NCBI RefSeq assembly: GCF_000002425.4
Contig: NC_037270.1
Location: forward strand, 7,324,098-7,388,097
DNA: 64,000 bases
From: Physcomitrium patens
Lineage: Eukaryota > Streptophyta > Bryopsida > Funariales > Funariaceae
Direction of reading: 5' to 3'
The notes beneath the pieces were generated by a model. That model saw only the letters and a list, made by a program, of their open reading frames with translations, was not told the origin of the DNA and did no database searches. Positions 12,735-48,679 of this stretch are shown in pieces. The translations under genes were made by a program, and so were the position numbers. Each line of letters begins with the position of its first letter. Position 1 is the first letter of the stretch.

Positions 12735-13729
12735 TAATACAACCGTAACTGGTTTCCATTAATGCATGTTGTAAAGTGGATTCCCAAAAAATCTTCCAAT
12801 TGAATGGAATCATTAGAAAAATCTTCCACCACCCGATATGGTCCATGCCATCGTACTTAAAATTTACCGAGAAAGTTGTTAAAGCGGCTATTATAAAGTA
12901 GCATCAGATCATTGGGCATAAAATATTTTGGCCATAACTTACTATCATAATAACTCTTTTTGCGGTACTGTGTAGCTTCCATGATCAAGAGAGCCGTAGC
13001 CCTAGCTTCATTCAATTTCTCCAATTGGACTAATTTATATTGAAGAGATTCTTTGTCTCCCATACGTTCATCCAACGCAATTTGTAAAATTTGGACCTCC
13101 AATTCAATTGGTAGAATTGCTTCCTAATCGTATATCAATTAAAATGGGATAGAATTGGTAGTTACTTTATATGCAATACGATACGCCCATAAAGCTACAA
13201 ATAATTTAGTGTCCCAATCAGTTCTTGCTCGTGAAATAATCTTTGTTAAGATCTTATATAGGATACCGTTGGTCTTTTCTATCTGTCTATTGGCTCATGG
13301 ATGATAAGGTGTAGTTTTGCGGTACTTGATCTCATACTTCACTGTTAATGCTTCAATTGTTGCATTAATAAAATATGTTCCGTGATCACTAACCCATTCT
13401 TTCGGACAGCCAAAACGAGTGATAATGTTTTCATATAAAAATATTGCTATGATATTGACATTATCAATTTTTATTGCTATGGCATCTGCCCATTTGGTGA
13501 CATAATCGGTGGCTACTAGAATATAACATTTATGTCTATTTCGAGAGGCAGGTGCAATGGATCCTATAAAGTCAATACCCCATTTTTTGAATGGTGTTTC
13601 TGCCAAAATTGGTACCAATGGTATTGCAAAAGTTCTAGTAGGGCAACCAATTCATTGGCAAGGATTACAACGATGAACATATTGGTGTGCATCCGAAAAC
13701 ATTGTTGGCCACTAATATCCAGCCATTAA
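12735..13729 (-). pseudogene. Integrase, decayed (B3)
   Basis: Same type as the B2 integrase. The zinc-binding end shows HRCNPC, the core WGIDFIGSIAPAS and ATDYVTKWADAI, then FGCPKEWVSDHGTYF (second catalytic Asp present) and RKTTPYHP. The C-terminal GPY/F region is still traceable to about 12735 but out of frame. Stops and frameshifts make it inactive. It is the first pol domain seen after the leader; gag, protease and RT are absent from this element. Confidence 0.8.
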
Positions 13730-13769
13730 AGATATCGATGTTCAGCTCAATTCTTTATTAAAATAAAAA

Positions 13770-24412: not shown

Positions 24413-26074
24413 AAGTTTGTGACAGTGGAGTTTGAAGGAGAAGAACCAAGACAAATGAAGATGGGAAGCCAACTAGAGGATGAAGAGATCTAAGCCTACT
24501 GTGAGTTGGTAAGAGAGTATCAGAAGGTCTTTGCATGGTCTTACAAGGAGTTAAAGGGGATTCCTCTTGAGATTGTAGAACATCAAATTTCCTTGATGAT
24601 CGGTACAGTGCCGATCAGGCAAAAAGAGAAGAGAATGAATCCTCAGCTTCAATTGATTGTGAAAGAGGAACTGGAGAAATTACTCCAAGCAGGTTTTATT
24701 AAACCTGTTGAGATCACAGATTGGGTCTCTCCCATGGTGCTTGTAAAGAAGAAGAATGGTAAACTTAGGGTGTGTGTGGATTATAGGAAGTTGAATTTTT
24801 GCACCCAAAAAGACCACTTTCTCTTGCCATTTATCACTAGCATCTTGGAAGAAGTGGCAGGTCACGATTTATACACATTTATGGATGGATATTCTGGATA
24901 CAACCAAGTATCTATTGCACCTGAAGATCGATACAAGACTGCATTTACAATACCTTGGGGGACGTTTGTGTGGCATGTGATGCCATTTGGATTATGTAAC
25001 GCCCCTTCTACTTTCCAACGTCTGGTGATGTCTATCTTCTCAGACTTGTTATACAAATCAATGACCGTGTTCATTGATGATTTCAGCACCCAATCTGATG
25101 CAGATTCTCACATTCATTTGGTGAAAGAAAGCTTAGAGAGGTGCAAGAAAGCTCGAATGGCCCTGAATCCAGAAAAAACCTATCTTGCCTTGATTAGAGG
25201 CATTTTGTTGGGATATATGGTTAGTAAGAGGGGTCGTGAGCCCGAGCCAGAAAAGGTGAAGGTAATTCAGAATTTATCACCTCCTACCAGTGTGAAGGAA
25301 GTGCAACGTGTATTGGGACACACTGGTTGGTATAGGGAGTTGATTGAAGATTACGCCACTATTACCCTTCCCATCACTAGCCTTCAGAAGAAAGGCACCA
25401 AATTTATATGGACTCAGGCTTGTAATGATGCTTTCGAGGTTCTAAAGAAGGAATTGTCTTCTTATCCAATATTGAGGCCCCCGAGGTGGGACTTGCCTTT
25501 CCACATCTATTGTGATGCAAGTGCGGTGGCGGTTGGCAGCATTCTGTGCCAACTTGTAGAAGGCCCAAGCAAGGGCAAGGATCATCCAATTGCCTACGTT
25601 AGTAGGCAATTAAATCTTGCAGAGAAAAATTATTCCACCACTGAGAGGGAATGTCTAGCCATGGTGTTCTCAGCTAAGAAGTTTAGACATTATATGTTGA
25701 GCAACAAAGTGGTTTTTTATGTGGATTACATGGCCATCAAGTATTTGGTTAACAAACCTGAGTTGAGCGGTCGGCTAGCTAGGTGGGTCTTGTTGCTACA
25801 AGAGTTTGATTACACTGTGGAGTACAAACCTGGATCCGTACACAAACAAGCAGATCACATGTCGAGATTGCCTGGAGGAATGGAGACCCACCCGATTGAT
25901 GATAGATTGATAGACGAGAGTCTTTTCTTGGTGACAGCTAGACCGGCATGGTATTCTAGGATTATTGAGTTCTTGACTACTCAACAATTGCCAGTGGATT
26001 TATCTAAGGACGAGAGGCGGAAGATTCGGGTCAATAGTCGTCATTATGTGGTGTTAGGGAACCGGTTGTATTGA
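24413..26074 (+). pseudogene. Reverse transcriptase-RNase H of A
   Basis: Same frame, open from 24506. RT motifs in order: WVSPMVLVKKKNG, FMDGYSGYNQV, MPFGLCNAPSTFQR, catalytic FIDD (25070-25081), then a LGHTGWYRELI segment of the thumb. RNase H has IYCDASAVAVGS, NYSTTERECLAM and FYVDYMAIKYLV, where relatives have an Asp-His pair, so one RNase H residue may be changed. The end shows ADHMSRLPGG. All RT motifs look intact. Stops at 24491 (TAA) and 26072 (TGA) break it from its neighbours. FxDD is typical of Athila-type RT. Confidence 0.9.
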
Positions 26075-27196
26075 CGTGGATTGGATGGAGTGTTAAGACG
26101 TTGTGTGATGGAAGATGAGGTTCCTTCCATTTTGTCGGCTTGTCATGACAGTGCATGTGGCGGACATTTTTCTGGCCAATTGACTGGTCAGAAAATTCTT
26201 AGGGCTGGTTAATACTGGTCAATACTCTTCAAAGACGCTCATACCTATGTGAGGCGTTGTGATGCATGTCAGAGATTTGTTAGGAATGACATTCACATGT
26301 AGTTGCCGCTTCACATTTTCCTACTATTGGTGTCATTCGAGAAGTGGGGCATCGATTACGTGGGAGAGATTCATCTTCATTCATCTCGAGGAATGACATA
26401 TATTGTAGTGGCCACTGAATATCTCACTAAGTGGGCTGAAGCCAAGGCTGTGAGGACAAATGATGCCAAGAATGCTGCAATCTTTCTCTTTGAGAATGTG
26501 ATTACTAGATTTGGAGTCCCAAAGATCCTTGTGAGTGATCAAGGTACTCATTTCCTCAACGAGGTGATTGAATCCATGATTGAACGATTCCAGATTGATC
26601 ATCGGAAGACTACATCCTATCACCCTCAAACCAATGGTCAGACAGAGCGAGTCAACCAAACACTTGGTACTATATTGAGGAAAACTGTTAGAGACTCCAA
26701 GCGTGATTGGGATGTGAAACTGCCAGCCGCCTTATGGGCATATAGAACAACATTCAAGGTCACCACGCAGGCTACGCCATTCTCTCTAGTCTATGGACTG
26801 GAAGCAGTTTTACTAATTGAATTTGAGGTTCCATCCCTTCGGATTGCAGTAGATTCCAGATTGACTGACAGACAATCTTTAAAGACAAGGTTGTACGAGC
26901 TCGAGGCGTTGGATGAGAGCAGAAGACGAAGGGCTCAACACATTGAGGCCATCCAGAGGCGGCGCAAGGTCGTATTTGATAAACGAAACAAGACTCGGGT
27001 CTTGCAACCTGGTATGCTTGTATTGTTACAAGATGCTCGGAAGATCGACTTTCCAAGCAAGTTTGATGCCGTATGGTTGGGTCCTTATCTTGTCAAGGAG
27101 GTGTTTTTAAACAACTCCGTACAATTGGAGACCTTGAATGGTCAATTGTTTCCTACACGAACATCAGGTAGCAGGTGTAAAGAATATAAGACATGA
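26075..27196 (+). pseudogene. Integrase of A
   Basis: Continues the same frame. The zinc domain keeps CHDSACGGHF and CDACQRF (HHCC type). The catalytic core has WGIDYVGEI, SDQGTHF and NGQTERVNQ, so all three DDE residues are present. GPY/F follows (WLGPYLVKEV), and the frame ends at a TGA (27194). There is no chromodomain. In-frame stops at 26210 (TAA) and 26300 (TAG) lie between zinc domain and core. It would insert the cDNA with a 5-bp stagger, which fits the TAGTG duplication. Confidence 0.9.
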
Positions 27197-27334: not shown

Positions 27335-29215
27335 TGTGAGCCCAAAAGTTGGTTCACTTTGTTGGTTAAACTAAAAAAATCTAAAAAAAATGAGGATTTT
27401 GATTATGTTTTGTTATAATAAGTTAGTTATAGACATTAATGTTAGTGGCTTATTGATGATTAGTAGTGGAAAGAAAAATCAAGGGAGAAGGGAGTGGTGG
27501 GAAAGATAAGAAAAAGAACCAAAAGAAAAAAAATAAAAAACAAAACAAAACAAAACAAAAAGGCCAAGAAGAAAGAAGGAAGAAGATGAAGAGGGACAAG
27601 GAGAAGAAGAAAAAAAAGGAGAAGAAAATAATTAGAAGTAAATTTATTGTGATGGGTTTGTCAAATTGTTGGTTCTTAATGATCTAGAACTTAGATTTGG
27701 GTGTATGAATAGTCAAACTTGATGTTTAAATATGTTTTAAACACATTGGTGGAGTTAGTTTTGTCAAAAAACGCTTCGAATTGGAGATTTTGGGCATGTC
27801 CAGCACTAAAATCGGGTTTAGGACTTAGGGTTAATGTGGGCCCTTGATCTTGATTAGGGTTGGTGGATTCGGATGGTGGAGATGTGGCCGCCACCCTTTG
27901 GTCTCTTCCTACTTGGATAAGAGGGTGGAGGTGGCCACACTCGCTCTCTCTCTCTCTCTTTTTTTTTTAGGGGGCGAAGCCATGCCAAATTGCATCCCCA
28001 CGTACCCTTGTTTCTATAGAGCTGCAATTGCGCAGCTGTAGTGTATTAGTTATCTAGAAATAGAACGTCAAATTTTACCAATAGTTAGATCTTGTCGTTA
28101 GCTTCCTCGGGACAGTAGGCACGCTTTGTTTGGAGAGAAAACAAGAAAGTTGTGGTGGTTTTAGTGACAAGGAGGTCAGCTGCCGGCCAGATCTGGAGGT
28201 CCGACTTTGGAAGGCGAGTGTTGGCGGACAGTATTGAATTTGGAGCTGAAACTTTTGTGGGGGATGGTCCTTGTTGTCAGCTTTTCAAGGACTATTTGCA
28301 CGCTTAGATTGAGTAAAGGCCAAGGAAGTTATGGTGGTTGGAGTGAAGAGGAGTCGGCCGTGGTGAAGATGTAGCACTCCGCCAACTCAAGCTACTTTGG
28401 AAGGTCATATCTTGGAATTCACTCAAGATTTTCAAGAAAAAATTGTTGGAGGTGATGCGGCTTCAATTCTAGTTTTTGGAATGCTAAAGCATATGCGTTG
28501 CACAACTGGAATGGAGCAAGGGCAAGGGTTTTTGTGGCTAGGGGTGCTCTGACTAGGCCGAGAAAGTCAGGCAACTTTGAGGCAAGATTTCTCTTAGCTT
28601 AATTGTTGTTTTGCATTGAATTTTGTTCGAGGACAAGCGCTTGTAAGTCTACTTTTTAAAATAGCAAAGCTTGTTATAAACAAGTTAGTGATGCAACCAT
28701 TGTAGTGGAATTCGTGCAAGGGGGTCGCTACCATGACTTGGAAGGTGGCGACTTCCAATTTTCTTTAATTTTTAGGATGAATCTTGGATGAATTAGGTCA
28801 ATTGCACGAATTGTCAGTTGGATGATAAGTTGACTTATGGTTGGATGAATGAATCTTTAGATGAAAATTGGATGAACAAACTTTGAATGAATGAATGTTA
28901 TAAGATGAATGAAATTTAAGGGATGGATGATTGATGAAGGGAAATTTAGGATGAATGAACTTAGGGTTTATGGATGAACTTAGGGTTTCTAGATGAACTT
29001 AGGGTTTCTAGATGAACTTAGGGTTTCTGGATGAATTTAGGGTTTCTAGATGAACTTAGGGTTTCTAGATGAATTTAGGGTTTATGGATGAACTTAGGAT
29101 TTATGGATGAACTTAGGGTTTATGAATGAACTTAGGGTTTATAAAAATTACGTGTGACTGAAGTTAATCCACTTGACTACTAAACGCAATTAAGGGTGGA
29201 GGATTTTAGCTCACA
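27335..29215 (+). repeat. 3' LTR of A
   Basis: 1881 bases; starts TGTGAGCCC and ends GCTCACA. It differs from the 5' LTR by about twenty substitutions, small A-run and CT-run length changes, and two extra 19-bp units (28951-29142, ten units). It should contain the polyadenylation region. Confidence 0.9.
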
Positions 29216-30539: not shown

Positions 30540-32330
30540 CCATTTTTGAAATAAATCCACAATTACAAGTAATTCTTTGTTGTGGATCTCATGATTAATC
30601 TTGGCTACTGAAATTTTTTTGGAATAGAAAGCTACTAAATGGACTTTCTTATCTACTCCTATTTGTGATGATACTACTCTTAAGACAAAGTCTAATATAT
30701 TTGTTTCCATGAAAAATGCCTTGAAAAAGTCAATATAATATAAGATTGGTGCAGAAGGAAACTTCTTTTTTTAAAGCATCAAATGATGCTTTGGCTTCTT
30801 TATTCCACTTAATTTTGTCTTTATAAGTCAAACATGTAAGTAGAGCTGTAATTTGAAAAATATTCTTGATGAAGATCTATTAATAATTGACAAAGTCTAA
30901 AAAACACTACACATCTCTTATTATTCTTGAAATCTTCTAATCCATGATAGTCTGAATCTTCTTTGAATCCATCATTAGTATTTTATTAGAAATGATGTAT
31001 CCTAAGAAATCAACTTAAATAGTATGGAATATACACTTTTTTAACTTGGCATATAATCCTGCATCTATAAATTTTTGTAATACACAACAAATATAAACTT
31101 TATGCTCTTTTATATTCTTAGAATAAACTAAGATGTCATCCATATTACAAAAAATAAAATCATCAAGAAACTTACAAAAGACATCATTCATTAGATGTTA
31201 AAAAACAACTAATATATTTGTGAGTCCAAAAGACATGACATTATATTCAAAATGTCCATATTTGATTTAAAATGTAATTTTTTATTTATTTCTTTCTTCA
31301 ATGCATACCAAATTATATGCTCCTTTTAGATTTATTTTTTTGTAGATCTTTACTTAATTTAATTAATCAAAAAATCTTAAAATCAAAAATAAGAGATATT
31401 TATTCTTAATGGTGATTTTATTGACTCTTCAATAGTTCATATATATTTGTAGAGATTTATCTTTTTTCTTTATAAATAAGATAGGAACTTAAATTAGAGA
31501 TTTAAAATGGTATATGAAATTTTTAGCCAAATTCTCATCAATGTCTTCTTTGAATGCAACCAATTTGTTTTGTGATAGGCTATAGATTGGTCCAAATAGT
31601 AGTTAAGTTCTTTCTTGAAGATCGATAAAATAATTATAAAGATAATACTCTGGAAGAATATCTACATTCTTCTTTTCAAAAATATTATAGAAATCTAGAT
31701 ATTGGCTAAGAATATTACTTGATATCTTTCCATCATCAGAAATAAGCATGGCATATATAGCAAAAGAGGATCCTTCTTTTGCAGCATGCATGAAATCTCT
31801 TTTATCTACCACTAAAGATTTGGATGTATTAGACTTATGTTTTTTTACTTGATAAATAAAAATTTGGATTAAACTATCATAAAAATTAAGGTTACAAGAA
31901 ATCAAATTTATCTGAAGATTATATTTTTTTAACCAAGATAATCCAAAAATAATTGAATTGAATAAACATCTTTTTATATTAAATATTATTATGCTAATAT
32001 AATCTTTAATTGCTACATCTAAAGAACTAATCTCATGTGTAATATCTTTAGAAGATAGCAAATGACCATCTTTAAAATTTATATATACGGATTTAGTTCT
32101 CTTATTTTTTGATAAAATCTTTATTTATAAAAGAGGTTGAGGCTCCTGAATCTAATAAAACTAAGACTTTGTGATTTTTTGATCTTAAATAAACTTCTAT
32201 TATTAAACAAAGTGAGAAATCTAAAGAAAGAATAAAATCTTTATTAAGAATTATGTAAGATTTTAGTTGCATAGTCTTTATTGTATCTAAAAAAACTTAT
32301 TTTTCAACACATCATCTTCTTTAGCAACCA
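30540..32330 (-). pseudogene. Chromovirus pol fragment (G): PR, RT, RNase H start
   Basis: Minus strand. The protease has LLDSGAS (32138-32158), the canonical D-S-G motif. It is followed by a 152-codon open stretch (31603-32061) with IIFGLSWLKKYN and FMHAAKEGSSFAIYA, parallel to VILGLSWLEKYN and [15 protein letters not shown] of E2. RT follows with NMDDILVYSKN (the YLDD box of E2, first residue lost) and FLGYIISN. RNase H is lost in stops near 30540. Gag is almost wholly missing: only about 340 bases separate the protease from the LTR. Same family as E2, much older. Confidence 0.75.
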
Positions 32331-32671: not shown

Positions 32672-33156
32672 TGTCTCATTCAAAAGTACTAAAAAGTCAT
32701 TCAAAGATAATATGGTATTAAACTAGAATGACTATTGCCAAAGACAAGAAGACTAGAAAATCTTGAAATAAGACTAAAGATTAAAAAAGCATTGATAAGA
32801 ATGAAGAAGGCTTCACTCTTGCTTCTATATATATTCTTAACTAGGAGCTACATGGTAATATCCTATAAGACCTCTAAAACATGTTGACTTTATAAGACAT
32901 GTATCTTAACTTACAAGGCAAGTTTTTTTATATATATGCCACATAGTTAACTTATTTGGCAAGCTACTAATACATGATTAATTTGTTGACCAAATTTCTA
33001 ACCTATCAATCAATTATAAATACATATAAAATCAAAATAATATCTATAAAGCTTTTAAGAAGCTTTTTTAGAAAATATTATTAAATAAATCTATTTTTAT
33101 CTATTTCTATTTAATCATATAAGTAAATATTAGAATAAATATGTATGTCTGTGATA
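32672..33156 (-). repeat. 5' LTR of chromovirus fragment G
   Basis: The reverse complement aligns with the E2 LTR: the start TATCACAGACATACATAT matches TGTCACGGATATACATAT, followed by the CTATATATAT, CAAGGCAAGTTTT and CTTCACTCTTGC blocks in the expected order. The left edge (LTR end) is approximate. No partner LTR remains on the left. Confidence 0.65.
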
Positions 33157-34780
33157 TTGAGTCAAAGGTGGATATTGACCAAGCTTTTTAGCCTATTTTA
33201 GCATTGGATATCACTTTGAGGCCTCTGGATCCCATATTCGGATACATTTTATGAGATAAAAGACAATCCTTGTAACATGGTAAGACATAGATTTGTAGAA
33301 AGAATTGCTGACATTTCTTTGTCAAATTAAAAATTTAGATTTCAAATATAGATGAAAAAGAAGCATCAAAGGTCTCTTATTTTCAATGAATTGTATACCT
33401 TTGAGTTCTTATTACAACACTTGGAGCACAAGGCACTCCAAACCTATAGAAAATAGAGTGAAGAATACTCACTTGAGTTGTATGAAATAAAGCATTATTA
33501 GAAGGCACACATAGAACATATTTCAGTTTTTAAAGAAGGTACTATTTCAAGCTTCGAGCTTACAATGAGGGAAGAAAATTCAACCTAAGAAGAAGTTGAT
33601 ATATCTTTAGAAGATATTAGAGGAAAAGAAGTAGCTACTTCTTTAACTAGCACTTCAACTACTTTGTTTGACATGGCTCAAGCAAAAAAGACAACTTTAA
33701 CTGCAATAGAAGAGCCACCATTATTTCAATCTCTCTAAATATTTATTAAGTACTTAGAACAAAAATACAGAGGTTTTAGGTATGATTAAATGTAATGCAA
33801 TCAAGACTTCTTTTATTAAAAAAAAGATTCTCCATATACCATGTATTTTTTAGCTGTCAAAAAAATTGAAGAAATCTTAATATTCATGTGCAATTGCCTT
33901 TATCTTTTGGTCTGAGGATATTAATTCTCTAACAAAGCCTTCTAATTCAACTTCAATACAAGATGAAGATATTAGTATTACAAACATAATATATATTTTA
34001 ACTTACAAAGTAGTAAATATGCCTATATTTTCTAATTTTGACTTGTTGATTTTATAATTTAAATTAATAAGTTTCTTTCATTTAGCTAGTAAAATATTAA
34101 AAGGCAAAGTACCTATACTATTATTAGAAGTGGCTCAAGCAATAACAAAGCCTTCAACATAGGAAGATTTAGCTAAATTATAAGAAAAACTTGCAATTGA
34201 AGCTATTGCTATATTTAATGAAGGTCACTTGAAGGCTACAAATATAAATCATTTAAGTGAGATACCATTGGCTACAGAGATAGCATTCTTATTTGATATT
34301 GTAACTAGACCTACTTAAGAATATAAAAATTTGTACATAAAAGTTATCCAATTAAATAATAATAATATACTAATTATTAGCCATACAAGTGGCAATACCA
34401 CTTATGCTAGACCTTTACACACTACGTTAGATTTTAGAGCTCAACCAATTATGATTGATATGCGTCTTTTTCAAGAATTAGATCTCACTTTTATAGACTT
34501 ATAATCTTATTTTTTTCTATTATTACTTTAGTAAGGAGTATGGAGCAAGCTACTAGCTACACTAAGTAATCTTTGTAATTGATATTTTATATTAGATCAG
34601 ATCCACTTTATTAGTACTTATTTCTAAAGTTTGCAATAGTTAGTGCCACCAACTATAATATTTTGGTAGATCAATAAGCCTCTTATCCATTTGATTTTAG
34701 CATAGATAATTGAATTAAAGAAAAATGGATTTGACCAAAATAGTCTACTAGTGATTAAAGAAAAGAATTCATTCTAGTCA
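33157..34780 (+). pseudogene. Gag-like and protease-like region of H
   Basis: 33157-34300 reads as a poorly conserved, decayed frame without zinc knuckles that I can recognise. From about 34340 a coherent frame appears: SHTSGNTTYARPLHTTLDF, then RAQPIMIDMRL. Its LDFRAQ segment would be the protease active site (D-x-G-A) with the Gly changed to Arg by one G-to-A step. Further on, ATNYNILVDQ and DFSIDN occupy the place of the later protease strand (ILG-type). It would process the polyprotein. It directly precedes the methyltransferase. Confidence 0.5.
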
Positions 34781-34829
34781 CATTTACAATCATTACTATA
34801 TTTATATTAGTAGTAATCTTATTTTATTG

Positions 34830-36060
34830 TAATGCATAAGCATCTGATTTGCCTTGTGGAGGAATTCTATTAGAAGAAATATTAGCATTTATGTCCCATT
34901 TTATAAGACTAGCTAATCTACTATCTTTAGAAATTTATGCAAAATATAATAAGGATCCATCTATTACCTAAAAAACATGTGTAATTTTTTTTACCAATGT
35001 AAAGATATTATATCTTCATTGAATATATTAAAGATATCAAAATCTATTTTTATCTATTTTTATCTAATCTATTCATTAGCATTTATTAAATGAGGGTATT
35101 ATGCTTGTAGAACTCTTTGTAGGCATTGATATAAGTTTAGTAGCACTATTGAAGGCTAAGCTTATTGTTTGACAATACATTCATAAGGATATTAGAATTA
35201 CACTTAATTGAGCAGTCCAACATCATCTTCAAAGATTATTGATTATGTATCTCAAATAATTACAACCTCCTACTATTCTTGGTTGTTTTATTTAACTTTC
35301 TTAAGATATTATCCTCATTGATGATGAAGATTAGAAGAAATTAGGTCATAGAAACTTATTGATTGTTGAATGGTCTTATCAAGGTCATTTATGGACTAGA
35401 GTAAATCAAGGATTAAATGATCTTTGATCCAATTTATTTACAAATTTGATGTAGTTTATATAGTAGTGGTTTACATATCAAATTACATCACTTGGATATA
35501 TTTTTGAAAATATACTACTATTGAATGACATTCAAATATAAATATTAGAGAATTATCAAAATATTAACTAATTCTTTAGTCTTTCAATCTTTATGGATGT
35601 TGTGGCTTTGGGCTCCTATATCCACTGATCTTGTTTAATTTAGACCAACTTGGTATTATTTTATATGCTTAAAAAAATAATTTTTAGAATTCAATGACCT
35701 CTTAGATGCTATATTGATGATATATTAGATGATAACCAAATTTCTTTAGTTGTTTCTAAAGTTGATGAATCTCTTCTTATCTTTGTTAATAAGATGGAAG
35801 CACCTTATGGCACATTTCTTACATTAGTGATATTTCCAATACCATTTGTATTTTGAGCACATAGACTTAGTATGATTTGAGATGTTAATTCACAAACCTA
35901 TAAAAAAACCTAATACCAATGAAAGTGAGTGTAATATAGGCTTTTTAATTAGTACCATAATTACTTATGATCTTACTAAAGGGCAATGTCATTTTTTCTT
36001 AGACCAAGCTAAAGACCTCAATACTTTAATATGGACTTTTGGCATATGTTTTATTTTTTA
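34830..36060 (+). pseudogene. C5-cytosine DNA methyltransferase domain in H pol
   Basis: One frame from about 35092 carries the order of C5-methyltransferase motifs. Motif I is LVELFVGID (35104-35130, SAM binding). Motif IV is at 35374 as SYQGH, where the family has P-C-Q; both changes are single transitions (CCT to TCT, TGT to TAT). Motif VI is FENI (35503-35514, family ENV). Spacings are 88 and 44 residues, close to known enzymes. The C-terminal part (frame shifted once in an A7 run near 35900) has a GF and then LDQAKDLNTLIWTF, resembling motifs IX-X (family GN..V). The catalytic Cys is lost, so this copy is inactive. An intact relative would methylate cytosine, perhaps on the element's own DNA. 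No gag or RT motif explains this stretch. Confidence 0.7.
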
Positions 36061-37930
36061 AAATCATTTTTATTATTATATTAATAGTATAAGGTCAAAA
36101 AATAATGTTTAAGATATAATGGATCTTGAACTTACTAAGGTTGAAGAATTCAAGTCATTTCTTTGCTTACAAAGGCATGCAAAAAATGAGCTATAAGTTC
36201 AAGGTATCTTTGTAGTTTTAATTAAAGATTTAGAAAAAATAAATGCATAGAATTTTTTTGTAGAAGATACTCCATGTTCTATCAATATTTCTAATTATCA
36301 CAAATATTATGATAATGAAGCCCTTCATTTGATTAGAAGTGAAGATATTAGAGGCATAAGAATTATTTTTTCAATAAATTAGTAGTTAAAGGCCGTGTCG
36401 ACATGTAATAGTACTCTATTGGTAAAGAAAGAGACCATAGAGTTTGATGATTGGCCATTAGAATTAAGGTCACATCTTATGGATGTCAAAGCATGAAAGG
36501 TATGATCTTTTATCTGCTTGTATTACAATTGTTTTACATTTAGTCTTGAGGATTTTGAAGGTTATAAAAGCAAACCTATTCACATCTAATAGGAAGAAGT
36601 TCATTCAATATTTTAATAACCTTATAGATTTAGGACCTCAAAAAAAGCTGATATCCAAGTTCATTGGCAAGAATTATTAACTTCATGCTTGATTAAGCTT
36701 TCTAATTGTAAGTACTCTTATTCTATAGTCATATCTATAAAAAAAGATATTTTTGGTAATTAGAAAAAAAAACAAATGTATAAAGACTATTGTCCAATTA
36801 ATTATAAGACTAAATCTAATGCCAATGCTAATGCTAAAAGAATTATTTGATGCAGTAAGATTCTTTCAATTATTCAATACTTTAGATTTAAGATTTAGTT
36901 ATCACCAATTACTATTACTTATTAAAGATCAAGTAAAGACAATATTTTGGAGTATTGATCAATATGACAAAGATCTTTCATTAGAAGTTCCTTCTATTCA
37001 GTCTTAAGAATGCACCAAGTAAGTTTCAATGGATAATGGACCAAGTTTTATCTGACTTATTATTTAGTAAATGCTATGTTAGTGATATTATCATTTTTAG
37101 TAGTATCCTAGAAGATCATATGAAGCATTTATAAGCAGTATTTAAATAATTATGACAATGGAGATTATGCTTACATTATAAAATATATAAATTCTTCTAT
37201 AAATGATTATCATATTTAGATCATATAATTATTTTAAGAGGTCTTAGTATATAATAAGCAAAAGTAGATACTTTGTAAAAAATCTTGACATCAAATAATG
37301 CTTCACAACTTCAAATTTTTTTAGGATTGACAAACTACTATCAAAAATTTGTTAAAAACTTTAGCATCATTACTGAGCTTTGAACTATTCTCATGGGTAA
37401 AGATAAACCATGGACTTGGATTTGTGAGTAAAAATATGCATTCAACATATTAAAGTAAAAGTTGGATTCAATTCTAATGCTTCTATGTTCAAATGCCAAT
37501 AGATATTTCTAACTATACACAAATTGGAGTGCAATAGGATTGGAAGTAGTCTTGATACAATAAGATAATATAAGATGGAAATATATTATTGCATTTTCTT
37601 CAAGAAGTAATAACAATGTAAAGTCAAATTATTCATCTTTAAAGGCAAAAGCTTTGGCAGTAATTTGGACCATTGCTCATTTTTTACCTTACTTGTATAG
37701 TCAATATTTTATATTAATAATTGACCATCAACCTCTCAAGTAGCTTGTGGAGTCAGACAAGCTTATTAATAAGCTTGCAAGATGGGCTTTGTTGCTTCAA
37801 AAATACAACTTTGAGATTGTACATTAGAGAAGTATTACTAATTTGGATGCCAATTGATTTTTTCATAATCTATGTCCTTCAAAAGAAGACTTAATTGGAG
37901 CTCAGTGGCATAGAAATTGTGATTGAAAGA
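36061..37930 (+). pseudogene. Reverse transcriptase-RNase H of H
   Basis: Starts after a spacer (WPLELRSHLMD near 36460). RT shows FNTLDLRFSYHQ (36870-36905), a decayed APSKFQWIMDQV segment, and CYVSDIIIFSS (about 37071-37103) where the catalytic YxDD would lie; the first Asp is replaced. Thumb: FLGLTNYYQKFVKNF. RNase H: LYTNWSAIGLEVVL, LKAKALAVIWTIAHFLPYLY, then LARWALLLQKYNFEIVH and a decayed NLDAN-stop end. Downstream EDLIGAQWHRNCD is a tag I associate with this element type. Many stops and at least two frameshifts. Confidence 0.75.
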
Positions 37931-39104
37931 TAGTTCTTATATAGCATACAACCACATACTTGACTTTAATGTCAAGTTTTGCAACCATAGTTTTTGAATA
38001 GAATTTAGATGAAGAATTAAATAAGTATCAAGTAATTAGTAATGTATGGAAAGCTCTTATAGGCTTGCATAAGCTTTAATAAAGAACATTTTCTTCAATT
38101 ATTTCTAACATGGAAATAAATATGATTAGTCACCAAACAATAAGATTTTTTTGAAAGAATAATTTGTTATTTCAGATATGATCTGATGGAACTAAGTACA
38201 TAATTTCAAGGCCATATTAAAATACATATTTAATATACCAAGTACATGAAGAATTTGAATATTTTAGAATGTATAAAATATATTCTATATTATATAATTA
38301 ATATTAATAGAGTGATATATATCAATAAGTAGCTATATATATTTCTTAATATGAAATATGTAATGAAGTTAGATCAAGCTTTAATACTTTATTATCTTAG
38401 TTGAAGCCATTACTTATTATGGATTTGGATTATCATTGGTCTTTTGACTTTATTGAACCACTTCTTGTAACTTCACATACAGCTAAATATATATTGGTGA
38501 TGGTAGAATATTTTAGCAAATCGATTGAATTTGTATTTTTATCACAAATTTCTTTAGAATTGGCAAATAAGGCTTTTTTTTATGAAATATTGGTACATTT
38601 TGGAGTGCTTGTTAAAATCTTAATAAATCCAAGAAGTAAGTTTCTTAAAAGTTTTGAAGATTTATATATTAAAGCTTTGATAGATCATTGTATCACATTT
38701 AGAAATCATCTTGAGATAGATGGCCTAATTGAATAGATTGTTTAAATTATCAAACATGAGTTACAAAAGTATGGATTACTTCATAGCAACTATTGTAATT
38801 GAAACTTAATATTATTAAAAATTATAATAGATTATTGCTTCAATACATAAGCATCTTTAACATCTTATAGTCCTTACTAGTTATTGTATAGATAGAAGAC
38901 AATTCTATCTAGCTCAATATGTAAGAAGCTAACTTCAATTGTGGACCTAAATAATTCTAATGTTTGAACTCAATGTCTATATGACCAAGTTTAGTTTTTT
39001 AAATAATCTATATCTAACGCTATAAAGAACTTATTTATTATTCAACATCATGATACTTTATAATATGCTTGCATCTATAATCAAACTTATCAATCCAAAA
39101 ATAT
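37931..39104 (+). pseudogene. Integrase of H
   Basis: The zinc end is faint (EICNEVRSSFNTL near 38360). The core (38401-38736, open for 111 codons) reads YHWSFDFIEPL (first Asp), YILVMVEYFSKSIE and LINPRSKFL (second catalytic site; the family has D-x-G, here Pro-Arg). DHCITFRNHLEIDGLIE then carries the Glu. The C-terminal region is recognisable to about 39100 (HHDTL, YACIYNQTYQ), then the sequence changes abruptly to chromovirus RT. There is no chromodomain in H itself. Confidence 0.75.
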
Positions 39105-40915
39105 TCAAAGATGTGTAATATTTTTTAAAATTTACTAATTATTATCAAATCTCTATTAAGAATTTTTTTCAAATTGTGGCTCTTTTTACATGCCAAATAT
39201 GTAAAGAAAAATTTAAATAGATGAAAAGAATTGAAGCTTCTTTTGAAGCCTTAAAGTCATCATTTATTTCTACACCAATCTTTTACTATGTTAACTTTTT
39301 TAAGGCATTCTTTATAGAAATAGATACATCAAACTTTATTATAGATGTTATTTTTTTAGAAATGGGAGCAAATAACAAGCTCCATTTGATAGCTTTTCAT
39401 TCCAAAAAAAATTTAGCAAGTAAGATTAACTACAAGATCAATAATAAAGATCTTTTTATAATTATGAATTCATTTTAAGAATGGTATCATTATCTAAAAA
39501 GCACTTCTATTCCAGCCACTGTGTATATGAAGCATAAGAATCTTGAATATTTCATATTGACATGTATTTTGAATTGCCACCAAGCCCATTGGAGCATGTC
39601 TTTATCAAGATTTGATTTCAAGGTCACTCTATTTCAAAGGTTATTTATATATTCCACAAGAAAAAGTACATTTATAGATTCTTCAAGCATATCATAATTT
39701 TTTAATAATATCAGATTTTTAATACAACAAAAATTTAGAGCTTATATATAAAGATTTTTAGTAGCTTCAAATATAAAAGGCTATGAAAGACTTTGTATAA
39801 TCATATGATATTTTTTCAAGATCCAAAATTCCTCATCATTGATCTTATAAACTTCTTTAGCTTTTACCTATTCTGGAACAATTATAATCTTTTGTTTCCA
39901 TGGATCTTCCAATCTTAAGTTTATATGATTTTATATTTTTGATATTAGATTATTCTACTAAGATGGCATATTTTGTATCATATACAAAATCTATCATAGG
40001 TGAAGAAATGACTAAATTTATTCTTTATAATATTTATCGCTATTATGGATTGTCTCAAGATATTATATAAGATAGGAAGATTCATTTTATATTAAGATTT
40101 TAGAAAATCCTTTTCAAAATTTTAAAAGTAGATATAAAGATCTCTTTGACTTTTCATCTAAAAATTAATGGGCTAATAGAATAGGTGAATCAAGTTTTAG
40201 AATAGTATTTGAGATATACTATCAACTACCATCAAGATGATTGGACAAATCTTTTTCCATTAGTAAAGTTTACATACAATAATTTGATATATTCTTCTAC
40301 TCAAAAAATATCTTTTTTTATCAATTATGGTTATTATCCACAACTTGATACTTTGACTTTTCAAAAGTTGATAATCCTATAGCAAAAGATTTGGTAAATC
40401 ATTTGTTATAGCTATATGCAACAATGAAGGTGCTATTAAAGGAAGCTCAAGAATAAAAAAAGATCAACACAAATGTCTATTACAAGGTACAATCACAACT
40501 CAACATGGATAAAAAAATATGATTACTTTGTCACAATATCAAGACTACTTATCTTTATAATAAATTAGACTATTATAAGCTTAGATCTTTTCTTATTTGT
40601 ATATAAGTCAATTGTGTTGCTTATCAATTATATCTATTGAAGTTTATAAAGATCCATCTTATATTCTACATATTTCTTTTTTAGCCATAGAAGACAATGA
40701 ATATTTCAAGAAGAAAAAAAAAATGTCACTTCTTCCTATAGATGTAAATAATAATCAAGAATTTGAAATGGAAGAAGTTTTAGATTCAAAGTAACACCAT
40801 AATAGATTAAAATATCTTATTTATTGGTATAGATATGATATTAATGAATACTTATGGAAGTTAGCAAAGAATCTTATAAATGCAGCAAAGGAGATTAAGG
40901 CTTTTTATTGATAAC
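39105..40915 (+). pseudogene. Old chromovirus pol: RT end, RNase H, integrase, chromodomain
   Basis: Aligns with E2 46570-48679. RNase H open stretch 39221-39478 (EIDTSNFIIDVIFLEMGA; E2 ETDASDFALGAVLSQMGT). A deletion follows near 39640 that removes the RNase H-integrase joint. Integrase core remnants run from 39700, then RVNQVLEQYLRYTI near 40185 and LIYSSTQKISFF. The chromodomain lies at 40741-40915 (NNQEFEMEEVLDSK, then YLIYWYRYDINE). The 5' part of this element is missing, with H sequence in its place. Inactive. Confidence 0.8.
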
Positions 40916-41499: not shown

Positions 41500-42009
41500 T
41501 GTCACATGCATACATTACCTATGTAATTAAATAAAAGTAGGTAAAAATATATTTATTTTATAATATCTTCTAAAAAAACTTCTTAGTAGTTTTATAGACA
41601 TTGCTTTGACTTTATATATATTTTTAGTTAATTAGAAATCTTAAAATTTGATCAATAAATTAGTCATGTATCACACATATTAATAGCTTATAAAACAAGC
41701 TAACTATATAACACATATATAGATAACTTATCTTATAAATTAAAGCATATATCTAGCAAAATCAATACATATTAAAAGTCGTATAGAATATTGTCATATA
41801 GTTCTTAGTTAGAGAATATATATGGAGACAAGAATGAAGCCTTCTTTACTCTTGTAAATATTTTTCTAATCTTTAATCTTAGTTTAATATTTTTTATTAT
41901 TTTTGTCTTTGATAATAGCCATTCTAATTTTTTTACTATATTAATTTTGAATGAATATCTATTTTTTTTAGTAGCAAAAGAATGTATTGAGTTTTTGATT
42001 CTTTGAGAT
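41500..42009 (+). repeat. 3' LTR of the old chromovirus
   Basis: Starts TGTCACATGCATACATTACC after a purine-rich AAAAGAAAAGATAA (41486-41499). Aligns with E2 LTR blocks (CAAGAATGAAGCCTTCTTTACTCTTG, then GATAATAGCCATTCTAAT) to about 42009. It is followed within a few bases by the next chromovirus LTR (E1). Confidence 0.75.
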
Positions 42010-42013
42010 TCAT

Positions 42014-42575
42014 ATCTAATACGGACATACGCATGTAAGCCAATATTTACATGTATAAATAGGTAGAAGTAAGTAAAAGTAAGTAAAAGTAAGTTAATTC
42101 TATAGTATTTGATATGGAAGCTTCTTAGAAGCTTTAAAGACACTGCTTTGACTTTATAGATATCTTTAATTGACTTTTTGGGATAAGAAATTTGATTAAC
42201 AAGTTGGCCATGTGTGACACATGTTGTTAGCTTGAAGACCAAGCTAATTATGTGGCCCACATATAGAAAAACTTACCTTGTAAGTCAAGGCATGTATCCT
42301 ACAAAGTCAACACATATTGGAGGTCCTATAGAATGTCGCCACATAGTCCCTAATAAGATAGTATATATAGAGACAAGAGTGAAGCCTTCTTCATTCTTCT
42401 CAACTTCTTTCTTGCTTCCAGTCTAGTTTCAAGGATCTCTAGTTTTCTTGGCTTTTGGCAATAGCCATTTCAGTTTCTTTCTTAATATACATATCAAGTT
42501 ATTTCTATTTTGTCATCTTTCTTTGAGAGAAGTCTCACTTGTTTATTTGTCTTTATCATGTTCTTGTCCTTGATA
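42014..42575 (+). repeat. 5' LTR of E1 with primer site behind it
   Basis: Aligns with the E2 LTR from ACGGACATAC to CTTGATA (E2 ACGGATATAC to CTTGACA). The first bases have decayed, so the start is uncertain by about 5 bases. Twenty bases behind the LTR, TAATATCAGAGCTT (about 42597-42610) matches the tRNA-iMet primer complement TGGTATCAGAGC in nine of twelve bases; the same spacing is seen in E2. Confidence 0.7.
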
Positions 42576-42802
42576 GATCAACAAGACTATATTTATAATA
42601 TCAGAGCTTTGTCTAATCTTAATTAAGAGTAGATTACTCTTTTTTCTTGATAAGACATAAGCATATTAGAAGTTGAGGATTACTCTCTTCTAAACTGATA
42701 TTGTCTTTCGTATTTATTTTATTCTCAAATTCTCTCTTCTATTTGTTGTGAGCGATATTAGACATCTTCTCTTTTCTAAGTGTTATCATAGCAGAACTTG
42801 CT

Positions 42803-43385
42803 GAAATGAAGAGTGCAATGGCACAAATGCAACAGCAATTAAGGGAGTTAATGCTTGCGATACATCAACTCAATTTACCACCACAAGGAGCAACAAGATT
42901 GGCAAGAAGTGAAGATATAGAAATGATTGGAGCTGCTTCAACATCTACACCAAATCATGTCCTTTCTCCTATGGTGGGACACCCTTCTAGTCTTAGAGAA
43001 CTAAGAATTACCCTATTCGAGATGTTTGATGGTACCAGATCAAACTTTAGAGGATTTATCAATCAAGTACAACTTGTGATTGAACTTCAACACCAAAGCT
43101 ATCCAACTCCAGGATTACAAGTTAGATTTATTCGTACGCTTCTTTCAAGTTCAGCATTATCATGATTTTCATTTTTTCTTGAATGACGAGATCCAATATT
43201 AGATAATCTAGAGGCTTTTTTGGCGGAGTTTCGATCCATGTATGGATAACATGATGCAATTGGTGTTGTAACCAAAAAGATCCATATTTTAGGACAAGAT
43301 AATCGATTAGTAACGTTGTATGCTTCAGAATTTTAACAACTTGTCACTAATATCAAGTGGGATGATGCTGCACTTATTAGCCAAT
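42803..43385 (+). pseudogene. Gag of E1, N-terminal part
   Basis: From MKSAMAQMQQQLREL through FDGTRSNFRGFINQVQL and LDNLEAFLAEFRSMYG. It parallels E2 gag closely, with stops at 43163 and later. It ends in CCAAT (43381-43385), the target duplication of solo LTR F, and resumes at 51932. Gag would form the particle shell. Confidence 0.85.
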
Positions 43386-43442
43386 TGTAAAGCTAAATTT
43401 CATCACTTGATGAAACCTATGCTAGACAACAAGTCCAAGAAG

Positions 43443-43990
43443 TGTCATGGATATACATATAATTACCTACAAGAGTCGATAAAAGTATATAAAAGTAGAT
43501 AAAAGTAGGTTAATTATGCAATATCTTCTAGAGAAGCTTCCTAGAAGCTTCATAGATGCTGCTTTGACCTTATAGGAGTCCATAGTTGACTTTTACGTTA
43601 AAAACTTGGTCAACAAGTTAGCCATGTGCCACACATGTTGGTAGCTTGAAGGACAAGCTAACTACGTAGTCCACTCATAGAAAACTTGCCTTGCAAGCAA
43701 AGACATGTGGCCTAGAATGTCAACACATATTGGAGGTCTTATAGAGTATCGCCACGTGGCTTCTAGTTAGATAGTATATATAGAGGCAAGAGTGAAGCTC
43801 TCTTCACTCTTGTCAACTCCTTTCTTGCTTCTAGTCTAGTTTCAAGGGTCTCTAATTTTCTTATCTTTTGGCAATAGCCATTTTAGTTTCTCTTACAATA
43901 TATATACTTGTTTATATATATTGTGTTACCTCTCTTTGAGTGAAGGCTCACTTGTCTGAATTTTTTTTCATCGAGTTCTTGTCCTTGACA
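43443..43990 (+). repeat. 5' LTR of E2
   Basis: Starts TGTCATGG, ends CCTTGACA. Contains AGTATATATAGAGGC (about 43769), a good TATA-box candidate; the same block is in the other E-family LTRs. Transcription would then start near 43800. Confidence 0.9.
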
Positions 43991-44010
43991 AATTGACAAG
44001 AGTACACTTA

Positions 44011-45206: not shown

Positions 45207-45937
45207 GGACCACGCAGCTGGAACCTTGTACAATTCCTAATGAAGGTCCTATCCTCTCCTTAGAATCCTCTCCTTGTTTTATAATAGACTTGTATTTAGG
45301 ACCTAAGAATTACAAAGCCTCTGCTTTATTAGATTCGGGAGCCTCAGCATATTTTTTAGATGAATAATTTGTTAAAAGTCGTAAAATATCTTTTGTACAG
45401 AAACCTAAACCAGTACATGTAGAAGTCATAGATGGTCGTCCCTTGTCTTCTGGAGATGTCACTCATGAAACTCATCCTATAAAAGTAACAATAGACGGTC
45501 ATGATAGCTACATAGCTTTTAACATAATTAAATCCCCGTCCAATCCAGTTATTTTAGGTTTATCCTGGCTAGAAAAATATAACCCTCAAATAGATTGGAA
45601 TTTGCGTAAACTTGACTTTTCTTAGAGCGTTATTAATAATTCTACCAACTAAGTAAAAAATTATAAGTCTAGTATAATAAAACCCGTACTGATAGGTACA
45701 AAAGCATTTATACACGCAGCAAAAGAAGGATCAACTTTTGCTATTTATGCTGCACCTATTTCTGAAAACGGAAAGACTTCAAGTGGCATTCCAAGTCAAT
45801 ATCAGGAATATCAAGACGTTTTTGAGAAAAAAAATGCAGATATTCTTCCTGAGCATCGCCCATATGATTGTTCAATCGACCTCAAGGAAGGAACTCAGCC
45901 ACCATTTGGACCAATTTACAGTTTATCGCAAGATGAG
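45207..45937 (+). pseudogene. Protease region of E2
   Basis: Catalytic motif LLDSGASA (Asp codon 45332). It is followed by FVKSRKISF and VILGLSWLEKYNPQID, the usual ILGxxWL hydrophobic strand. Stops within DE-stop-FV, LDFS-stop-S and TN-stop-VK. It continues in frame to a linker with [15 protein letters not shown] that leads to RT. Confidence 0.85.
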
Positions 45938-47125
45938 ATGGCTGAACTGAAGACATATATTGACGAGAATTTAGCGAAGAATTTCATACGCCATTCAAAA
46001 TCTCCAGCAAGAGCTCCAATTCTATTCGTAAAGAAAAAAGATGGATCTTTACGAATGTGTGTTGATTATCGAGGACTCAACAAGATCACAATCAAGAACA
46101 AGTATTCATTACTTTTGATATCAAGACTCCTTGACCAGCTGAATCAAGCTAAGATCTATACAAAAATAGATCTAAGAGGAGCATATAATCTAGTACGGAT
46201 CAAAGAAGGAGATGAATGGAAGACTAAATTTCGAACCAGGTATGGACATTTCGAATATAATGTCATGCCCTTTGGACTCACGAATGCACCAGATGCTTTT
46301 CAACATCTCATGAATGATGTATTTCGTGAATTCTTAGACAATTTTGTCGTCTGCTATCTAGACGATATCCTGATCTATTCTAAGAACGTCGAAGAACATG
46401 AAATATATGTTTGTCAAGTATTACAAAAACTTAGAGATGTAGGATTGTACGCCAAGATGGAAAAGTGTGTATTTCTTACTACTCAAGTTGACTTTTTAGG
46501 ATACATCATTTCAAATGATGGTCTCATGATGGATTCTAAGAAAGTCCAAACAATCATGGATTGGAAGATTCCAAGGACAGTAAGAGATGTCCAATGTTTC
46601 TTGGGATTTGCCAATTACTATCGGATCTTCATCAAAGATTTCTCACGAGTTGCAGCTCCACTTACACGCTTGACTAATAAAGATAAATTCCAATAGAATC
46701 AAGAAGCGGAAGCAGCATTTGAAGCCTTGAAGTCATCGTTTGTCTCTGCACTAGTCTTATATCGTGTTGACTTTTCCAAGGCATTTTTTATGGAAACAGA
46801 TGCATCAGATTTTGCCTTGGGTGCAGTTTTATCACAAATGGGAACAGATGACAAACTTCATCCGATAGCTTTTCATTCAAGAAAATTCTCAGCAGCCGAG
46901 ATCAATTATGAGATCCACGATAAAGAACTTCTTGCAATCGTGGATTCGTTTCAAGAATGGCGTCATTATCTAGAAGGCGCTTCTAGTCCAGTCACTGTGT
47001 ATACAGATCACAAGAACCTCGAGTATTTCATGTCAGCACGTGTGTTGAATCGTCGTCAAGCTCGTTGGAGTATGTCTTTGTCAAGATTCGAGTTCATTAT
47101 CACTTATCGGCCAGGAAAACAATAA
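45938..47125 (+). pseudogene. Reverse transcriptase-RNase H of E2
   Basis: [58 protein letters not shown], catalytic YLDDILIYS (about 46354-46380), [16 protein letters not shown]. RNase H: ETDASDFALGAVLSQMG, EINYEIHDKELLAIVD, TDHKNLEYF. All catalytic residues look present. In-frame stops at 46694 (CAA or CAG to TAG) and 47123 (TAA) only. Confidence 0.92.
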
Positions 47126-48679
47126 GGTTTGTCCGATGTCCTATCTAGACGTTCTTATTTTGTACCAAAAGAAGGAGATGCAGCTTTTGAGCAACAAAGA
47201 ACGGTCCTCTTGAAATCGGAGCAATTTCATCTCCGAGAAATGAAATCAACATTGACTGTTGATTCAACTTTTCTCAAGCAAATCCAGTCCAGTATGTCCT
47301 TAGACCCTCTTGTTCATGATATCGAGAATAATTCTTCCAAGTCTCATGATCCTTCTAAGTTCGAGTTCAAGAATAATCTATTATATTTTGAAGGACGCCT
47401 ATATGTTCCAGAAAGAGAAGCACGTTTACGTGTTCTTCAAGCACGTCATGACTTTCCAGCAGCAGGGCACTTTAGATATAATAAGACTCTGGAACTCATA
47501 TCAAGAGATTTTTGGTGGCCACAAATGTGGAAGTCAGTCAAAGACTTTGTACAATCATGTGATATTTGTTCAAGATCAAAAACTCCTCGTCATCGACCTT
47601 ACGGACTTCTTCAGCCATTACTTATACTAGAACAACCATGGTCTTCTGTTTCTATGGATTTCATCACAAATCTTCCAAGCTCAAGATCTTATGATTCTAT
47701 ATTTGTGATAGTAGATCGTTTCACCAAGATGGCACACTTTGTGCCATGTACAAAATCTATCACAGGTGCAGAAACAGCTAAGCTTTTCATTGATAATATC
47801 TATCGCTATCATGGATTACCAAAAGATATCATATCGGATAGGGGAACTCAATTTGTGTCAAGATTTTAGAGGACCTTTTTCAAGATTTTAAAAGTGGACA
47901 TAAAGCTATCTTCCGCTTTCCATCCTCAAACTGATGGACAAACAAAGCGCGTAAACCAAGTCTTGGAGCAGTATTTAAGGTGTACTATCAACTACCAACA
48001 AGATAATTGGATAACCCTTCTGCCATTGGCAGAGTTTGCTTATAATAATACAGTACATTCTTCCACGCAACAAACATCTTTCTTTGCCAATTATGGCTAT
48101 CATCCACGACTTGATACTTTTGATTTTTCAAAAGTTGATAATCCTGTAGCAGAAGATATGGCAAATCGGTTGTCAGAGTTACATGCAATAATGAAGACGC
48201 AATTGAAGGAAGCTCAACAACGACAAAAGATAAACGCAAATCTATATCATAAGGAACAACCACAACTCAACGTGGGTGATAAGGTATGGCTACTTCATCG
48301 CAATATCAAGACTACTCGATCTTGTGACAAGTTGGATTATCGTAGGCTTGGCCCCTTTTCTGTTTCTGAACAGATCAACCCAGTTGCATATCGGTTACAT
48401 CTATCGGAGTCAATGAAGATCCATCCTATATTCCACATGTCTCTTCTTGAACCATATAAGACAGTGGATATACAAAGAAGAAGACAAATGCCACTGCCTC
48501 CTATAGAAGTAGATAATAATGAAGAATTTGAGGTGGAAGAGATATTAGACTCAAGGCGGCGCCGAAATAAGCTGGAATATCTTGTTCATTGGCACGGATA
48601 TGATATTAGTGAACGCACATGGGAGCCATCCAAGAATCTAGCAAATGCATCAGCTAAAGTCAAAGTTTTTCATCAATGA
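47126..48679 (+). pseudogene. Integrase with chromodomain of E2
   Basis: HHCC zinc domain (HDFPAAGH, then CDICSRSK). Core: VSMDFITNLP, SDRGTQF, then DGQTKRVNQ. The third position of the DDE triad is Lys instead of Glu (GAG to AAG), so catalysis is lost besides the stop at 47867 (TGG to TAG). Then a GPF-type module (RLGPFSVSEQ) and a chromodomain (48521-48676: VEEILDSRR, LEYLVHWHGYDISERTWEP). Chromodomains guide insertion toward marked chromatin. The last TGA (48677) may itself be a mutated CGA. Confidence 0.92.

What the first reader, a model, noticed from the sequence alone, without database searches (positions are those of the whole stretch)
34830..36060. C5-cytosine DNA methyltransferase domain inside a gypsy Pol polyprotein
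Between the protease-like and RT regions of H one plus-strand frame shows, in order, LVELFVGID (motif I), a decayed P-C-Q motif (SYQ, two transitions away), FENI (motif VI), and after one A-run frameshift a GF..LDQAKDLN end like motifs IX-X. Spacings of 88 and 44 residues fit C5-methyltransferases. Neighbouring domains are clearly gypsy, so the enzyme was part of the element. Capture of cytosine methyltransferases by retrotransposons has been reported in some algae and dinoflagellates as far as I recall; here it sits in what looks like a land plant. Such an element could methylate its own or its host's DNA to hide from silencing or to time its activity.
Basis: partly seen in the sequence, partly recalled or inferred. 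Interest (0 to 1): 0.92.

Follow-up and report, generated by a model that had tools for sequence, protein, structure and literature searches.

The report
Moss retroelement carrying a DNA methyltransferase
A long-dead jumping gene in a moss genome once carried its own DNA-methylating enzyme, and relatives whose reading frames are still open exist in liverworts and environmental samples, which extends to land plants something reported before in an alga and in dinoflagellates.

Summary
Window 35089-36052 encodes a decayed C5-cytosine methyltransferase (MTase) between protease and reverse transcriptase of a gypsy-type element (33157-39093). This copy has 17 stops and gives no Pfam hit itself, but matches an open relative at E 2e-59; shuffles reach 20.8 bits against 172. 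The host genome (I infer Physcomitrium patens) gave 150 scored matches, this copy included, 149 with stops. Protein models with the domain exist in Marchantia, Calypogeia, Sphagnum, Mesostigma and unnamed samples. The domain is Dnmt3-like by profile and fold, its catalytic residues mostly conserved. New here: the MTase lies in the Gag-protease ORF before an in-frame UAG in a CARYYA context, so was probably made in Gag amounts; a second arrangement has it between RNase H and integrase; a PHD finger ends the polyprotein. Dnmt3 in a gypsy Pol is published for Klebsormidium (PMC5890265), so the kind is known; I found no land-plant report. Activity is untested; the moss copies show only neutral decay.

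The parts
33157..39093 (+). MTase-bearing gypsy-type element, decayed; ends set by where nucleotide matches to sister copies stop (other repeats abut both sides); LTRs not found
   Evidence: blastn to L022, L024 and the C2 and C3 copies at 74-77% identity in the long pieces; tblastn of L017 ORF1 (E 5e-116) and ORF2 (E 0)
33646..34363 (+). GAG remnants (two pieces, 33646-33846 and 33938-34363)
   Evidence: tblastn E 2e-8 and 1e-17
34367..34836 (+). retropepsin-type protease remnant and following stretch
   Evidence: tblastn E 9e-24; relatives hit PF13650
35089..36052 (+). Dnmt3-like C5-cytosine methyltransferase domain, decayed: motif I 35104-35130, motif IV (WSYQ) 35371-35382, motif VI (FENI) 35503-35514, motifs IX-X 35939-36022; frameshift at A-run 35902-35908
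   Evidence: tblastn E 2e-59, 42% identity over 273 aa and 46% over 50 aa; coordinates; shuffles; sister copies PF00145
36134..36286 (+). tail of ORF1 after the MTase
   Evidence: tblastn E 1e-4
36380..36388 (+). ORF1/ORF2 junction: in-frame TAG followed by TAG TTA, at the place where L017 has TAG CAA TCA and sister copies have TAG CAA TTA or TAG CAG TTA; putative leaky stop
36392..37269 (+). start of ORF2 and reverse transcriptase remnant (three frames)
   Evidence: tblastn E 5e-71
37279..38052 (+). RNase H remnant
   Evidence: tblastn E 2e-86
38065..39093 (+). integrase remnant; no match to the PHD finger of the relatives in this copy
   Evidence: tblastn E 5e-80; PHD in L022, L024, L025 and the C2 copy

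Best explanation
Shown: the window holds a dead copy of a gypsy-type retroelement whose ORF1 was Gag-protease-MTase and whose ORF2 was RT-RNase H-integrase (with PHD in relatives); the MTase is a Dnmt3-like C5-cytosine methyltransferase and an inherited part of the element, in the host family and in relatives of other bryophytes. Inferred, with falling confidence: (a) ribosomes mostly stop at the UAG between MTase and RT and a minority read through, so the MTase was made with every Gag (about 0.7); (b) the protease released it inside the virus-like particle, where it put methyl groups on the double-stranded cDNA before integration (about 0.4); (c) the new copy therefore arrived already methylated, which may have disguised it, protected it, or damped it to spare the host (not separable here). 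Methylation and deamination later wrecked the copies seen in this moss. The confidence below is for the shown part.
Against: The window copy gives no profile hit by itself. The host copies show no purifying selection: median pairwise dN/dS 0.86 in the coding frame, not below the shifted frames (0.47, 0.77); protease 0.91 and RT 0.78 behave alike. The catalytic Cys reads Tyr in 18 of 31 copies, much like another invariant Cys (15 of 31), so this is general decay. No LTR-like pair was found in four 10-kb loci. The published gypsy Dnmt3 of Klebsormidium showed no activity in yeast, called inconclusive by its authors (PMC5890265 section 10). I have no activity data for these proteins.
Confidence: 0.9

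Rival explanations
1. A chance likeness in AT-rich, stop-ridden DNA.
For: No Pfam hit on the window copy; motif IV is decayed.
Against: 172 bits against at most 20.8 in 100 shuffles; 150 scored matches in the host genome; open relatives.
Confidence: 0.01
2. A host DNMT3 pseudogene that lies next to or inside an unrelated gypsy element.
For: The host has its own DNMT3-like genes (L027, L028).
Against: The protease lies next to the MTase in 29 of 31 copies and RT on the other side in 23 of 31; 24 protein models read GAG-PR-MT and P0151 reads GAG to PHD; holding type A MTases with cellular DNMT3 without type B is rejected, p-AU 1.7e-4.
Confidence: 0.01
3. The enzyme acts on RNA (genomic RNA or primer tRNA), as DNMT2 does, not on cDNA.
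For: Gag-level production would put it beside the packaged RNA; PMC5890265 raises RNA methylation for SymbioLINE-Dnmt.
Against: Profile and fold favour DNMT3; the only DNMT2 entry within E 0.001 was 4h0n at 9.4e-4.
Confidence: 0.12
4. The MTase is a brake: it methylates new copies so that the host silences them early and is less harmed.
For: Host copies carry the mark of methylation decay (CpG o/e 0.00-0.45 in 31 copies); PMC5890265 offers this option.
Against: Host enzymes alone could give the same decay; I did not compare other element families of this genome copy by copy.
Confidence: 0.25
5. Two separate captures of DNMT3 gave the two arrangements (PR-MT-RT and RH-MT-INT).
For: The positions differ; PMC5890265 reports independent captures in other groups.
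Against: All 33 element MTases form one group (94/97, not at the starred level); type B with cellular DNMT3 rejected, p-AU 8.7e-5; RT of A and B are sister groups (B 99/99, A 90/92, both 95/97).
Confidence: 0.15

Closest known systems
KnitGypsy-Dnmt3 of Klebsormidium nitens (de Mendoza et al. 2018, PMC5890265)
   Same: Intronless Dnmt3-type MTase inside the Pol ORF of a gypsy element of a streptophyte, key residues conserved.
   Different: There an alga; here bryophytes and a dead moss family. Its sequence and Fig. 4c were not available to me, so domain order, PHD, stop context and kinship could not be compared; its repeats are DIRS-like, ours were not found. There Ka/Ks below 0.2; here the host copies decay neutrally.
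SymbioDIRS-Dnmt3 and SymbioLINE-Dnmt (same paper)
   Same: Retroelement-borne C5-MTases; SymbioDIRS also has two domain orders; SymbioDIRS enzymes methylate CG in yeast.
   Different: DIRS and LINE classes, not gypsy; dinoflagellates.
Cellular DNMT3 and DRM of P. patens (PMC6453930) and mammalian DNMT3A/B
   Same: Mammalian DNMT3s are the nearest solved relatives by profile and fold.
   Different: No ADD or PWWP in the Pfam scans of the element proteins; motif order is not rearranged as in DRM; the element MTases form a group apart.
TMV-type leaky stop UAG CAR YYA, used also before the env-like ORF of soybean SIRE1 (both recalled, from no call)
   Same: Same nine-letter pattern at the ORF1/ORF2 junction.
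   Different: Here it would separate Gag-PR-MTase from RT-integrase; readthrough not tested.

Membership tests
C5-cytosine DNA methyltransferase (PF00145) | Profile match over cut-off and motifs I, IV (PCQ), VI (ENV), VIII, IX-X in order | tested here: met
   Met in relatives and in L007/L008; in the window copy the order is there but PCQ reads SYQ and Pfam is silent
C5-cytosine DNA methyltransferase (PF00145) | Transfers methyl from AdoMet to cytosine C5 | not testable with these tools
   no assay; the window copy cannot be translated whole
DNMT3 | Catalytic domain closer to DNMT3 than to DNMT1/2, DRM or bacterial enzymes | tested here: met
   (25 of 25 matches DNMT3, best only 0.017)
DNMT3 | Branches within cellular DNMT3 | tested here: inconclusive
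   element MTases form their own group beside a DNMT3/DRM/phage group; long branches, few references
DNMT3 | Companion ADD/PWWP domains (animal type) | tested here: not met
   Pfam scans at E 0.01 of P0002-P0005, P0008-P0010, L017 ORFs, P0104, P0129, P0042, P0053, P0013, P0151, P0155, P0140, P0145, P0148, P0157 list none; PMC12344493 says protist and algal DNMT3s lack companion domains too (passage)
Ty3/gypsy LTR retrotransposon | PR-RT-RNase H-integrase order | tested here: met
Ty3/gypsy LTR retrotransposon | Flanking direct LTRs | tested here: inconclusive
   No LTR-like pair in L022, L023, L024, L026; L024 has only a 109-nt pair spaced 115. The C2 copy has a 105-nt pair (87%) about 450 nt apart just past its PHD, not followed up. 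Copies are truncated and decayed
KnitGypsy-Dnmt3 | Gypsy Pol with Dnmt3-type MTase in one ORF with Pol or Gag domains | tested here: met
KnitGypsy-Dnmt3 | Common descent with the Klebsormidium element | not testable with these tools
   sequence not held by name; no look-ups in supplements allowed
KnitGypsy-Dnmt3 | Ka/Ks below 0.2 among copies | tested here: not met
   median 0.86 in 465 pairs of 31 decayed moss copies; for the open relatives I had proteins, not DNA (save L017)
TMV-type stop-codon readthrough | UAG CAR YYA between two in-frame ORFs | tested here: met
   L017 exact; of 11 moss junctions 3 exact, 4 one transition off (the window among them), 4 not
TMV-type stop-codon readthrough | Measured readthrough product | not tested
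   no translation data

The most novel reading that the evidence does not exclude
One ancient capture of a Dnmt3-like gene founded a streptophyte gypsy lineage, from Mesostigma to mosses and liverworts, in which the MTase later changed place within the polyprotein. In the bryophyte form it is made at Gag level through a leaky UAG and works beside an integrase that ends in a PHD finger, so that the element carries a histone reader and a DNA-methylation writer as two separable products and inserts copies that are methylated before they meet the host's chromatin.
Probability: 0.3. Interest if true: 0.85.

Novelty: new variant of a known kind. Interest (0 to 1): 0.62.

Why it matters
Elements that encode the very mark used to silence them are a standing puzzle. 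Bryophyte members matter because Marchantia and Physcomitrium are tractable: whether the enzyme helps the element, protects its cDNA or spares the host becomes a question for a knock-out and a methylome. The leaky-stop layout makes a sharp prediction (Gag-level MTase) that I did not find stated in the papers listed or seen, and the two domain orders suggest that the enzyme was kept while the polyprotein was rebuilt.

Tried and rejected
Rejected: chance; a nested host pseudogene; a phage or bacterial enzyme as nearest kin (8 IMG/VR loci at 29-58% and 4 Streptomyces loci at 35-55%, mostly over short stretches; HhaI and two Streptomyces enzymes branch elsewhere, with long branches, and phage L009 groups with cellular DNMT3/DRM). 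A dead-enzyme subfamily (Tyr for the catalytic Cys) was considered and dropped because another invariant Cys decays about as often. Selection from the host copies: none seen. LTR search: nothing LTR-like; termini remain open. Pfam on the window reading: nothing. A test of how many RT copies of this lineage lack an MTase could not be run (genome search busy), so the share of MTase-less copies is unknown and the 31 of 31 is by selection. L017 (Synechococcales MAG) and P0013 (Obscuribacterales MAG) I take for eukaryote DNA binned wrongly; not proven. P0129 (MTase beside integrase without RNase H) could be a deleted type A copy and I leave it unassigned. In one search I went by best-hit position and did not check the strand of each neighbour.

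Full report
What is in the window. Read in the frame of 35101, the + strand shows motif I, a decayed motif IV, motif VI and, after an A-run at 35902-35908, the end motifs of a C5-cytosine methyltransferase. Seventeen stops interrupt 35101-35907. Pfam finds nothing in this reading with X at the stops. The window lies at C18:7324098-7388097 of a 470 Mb genome in 101 contigs. Matches fell on contigs up to C27, and the lengths I saw run from 30.2 Mb (C1) to 5.3 Mb (C27). Two loci look like DRM (L001, L002), two like DNMT3 (L027, L028), one like CMT (L029) and one like MET (L030) (my naming). From this I infer Physcomitrium patens; no tool named it.

Sister copies. A PF00145 search of that genome gave 12 matches, host genes included; among them L007 (C25) and L008 (C18) read the same frame as the window with WPCQ still legible, and L007 with FENV, and score PF00145 at 1.1e-7 and 5.4e-8. 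With L007 as query the genome gave 150 scored matches out of 290 candidates, the last at 1.7e-15; 149 contain stops, the exception being a 68-residue piece. Merging rows within 2 kb, by eye, leaves 145 places, a lower bound. The window is one of them (54% identity). I examined 31 places (the window and the 30 best) with about 1.5 kb on each side: MTase in 31 (by selection), protease in 29, GAG in 23, RT in 23, in element order by position. In six longer loci (window 12 kb, L022-L026 10 kb each) MTase and protease are in 6, GAG and RT in 5, PHD in 3; a further copy on C2 shows GAG to PHD. The 31 are AT-rich (GC 0.24-0.31) with CpG observed/expected 0.00-0.45; the window element has 0.08 against 0.52-0.58 in three other parts of the window.

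Relatives with open frames. The L007 reading found ten proteins at 8e-55 to 1e-30. They align from Gag with zinc knuckles through an Asp protease to the complete MTase; P0010 is cut inside the MTase and P0008 lacks Gag. The nine with a whole MTase end 89-122 residues after it (lengths and positions). A profile of five MTase domains found 167 proteins, 120 listed, the named plants being Calypogeia fissa (two pieces) and Sphagnum troendelagicum (one piece). A third search found 36, of which 28 were new, among them nine Marchantia polymorpha entries and a Mesostigma viride model. Of the 158 proteins, 109 show only the MTase, 41 follow the order (GAG-)PR-MT(-RT...) or a part of it, and 8 have the MTase beside RNase H or integrase: four RT-RH-MT-INT-PHD, two MT-INT-PHD, one RH-MT, and P0129, which I leave unassigned. 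P0151 has everything in one frame: GAG-PR-MT-RT-RH-INT-PHD.

Layout and translation. In L017 (8.2 kb, 52% GC, filed under a cyanobacterial MAG, probably misbinned) ORF1, open at its 5' end, ends with TAG and ORF2 follows in the same frame; the letters are TAG CAA TCA. In the moss copies 11 alignments span the place out of 35 loci searched: exact TAG CAR YYA in L054, L040 and L046; TAG TAG TTA in the window, L050 and L035 and TAA CAA TTA in L057 (one transition each); L024, L033, L049 and L055 differ more. UAG CAR YYA is the tobacco mosaic virus type of leaky stop (recalled; two searches gave no text for it). It would put the MTase in the major Gag product. Marchantia models P0140, P0141 and P0150 end at the matching place, while P0145, P0146 and P0152 are models that run on into RT; their DNA was not at hand. 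In the second arrangement the MTase lies in the RT-integrase protein instead. The PHD of L017 (PF00628, 4e-10) resembles those of CHD4, PHF12, KMT2D, UHRF1 and KDM5, several of which read the unmodified H3 tail (recalled).

Descent. In a 41-row tree the 33 element MTases form one group (94/97), type B nested in it (100/99); Marchantia, Calypogeia and Sphagnum fall in one group (100/99), the moss relic with P0002, P0004 and P0005 (88/84). Mesostigma has a long branch and no sure place. Holding type A or type B alone with cellular DNMT3 is rejected (p-AU 1.7e-4 and 8.7e-5). In the RT tree A and B are sister groups apart from four other gypsy elements of this window. One capture followed by a move inside the polyprotein is the simplest reading; references were few and branches long, and MTase-less relatives were not sought.

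Decay. Among 31 copies the MTase has median dN 0.284, dS 0.322, ratio 0.86 in 465 pairs; the shifted frames give 0.47 and 0.77; protease gives 0.91 and RT 0.78. The copies thus show drift without visible constraint, and nothing about selection on the MTase can be drawn from them. Transitions outnumber transversions 2.8 to 1. The Cys of PCQ reads Tyr in 18 of 31, another invariant Cys in 15 of 31.

Literature. PMC5890265 (abstract; sections 9, 10, 11; passages) describes Dnmt3 in a gypsy Pol of Klebsormidium nitens and calls it an independent capture in that lineage; the one place with 'bryophyte' concerns the host gene. [quoted passage not shown] PMC6453930 and PMC10952607 (passages) speak of host DNMT3 in what I saw. 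My paper searches listed no title or abstract on such elements in a land plant; most listed papers I did not open, and subscription papers, preprints and supplements were out of reach.

Verdict. The copy itself is dead and its class has been published for an alga; what is added is the land-plant family, its size in this moss, the two arrangements, the PHD, and the leaky-stop layout.

Noticed in passing
window 24455-26812, 45887-48316, 57301-59068 (+); 7508-10047, 13079-13741, 30769-31599 (-); 39122-39625 (+): Other gypsy Pol remnants without an MTase match; the one at 39122-39625 begins right behind the element, and a repeat shared with the C3 copy (32720-33113) ends right before it.
   Followed up: partly
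window 29000-29162: Tandem 19-nt units with a TTTAGGG-like core.
   Followed up: no
window 41525-44000: Three-copy local repeats of 105 and 275 nt, spacing about 545 and 1415; parts recur near the C3 copy.
   Followed up: no
P0153, P0154, P0155, P0158 (also P0156, P0159, P0104): A second class of elements with the MTase between RNase H and integrase and a PHD at the end, sources unnamed.
   Followed up: partly
L017 and P0013: Eukaryote-type retroelement pieces filed in Synechococcales and Obscuribacterales MAGs, probably misbinned.
   Followed up: partly
L009 4753-5664 and L010 2724-3635: IMG/VR contigs with a Dnmt3-like MTase; L009 branches with cellular DNMT3 and DRM.
   Followed up: partly
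L017 7595-7670: Tandem 38-nt repeat downstream of ORF2.
   Followed up: no
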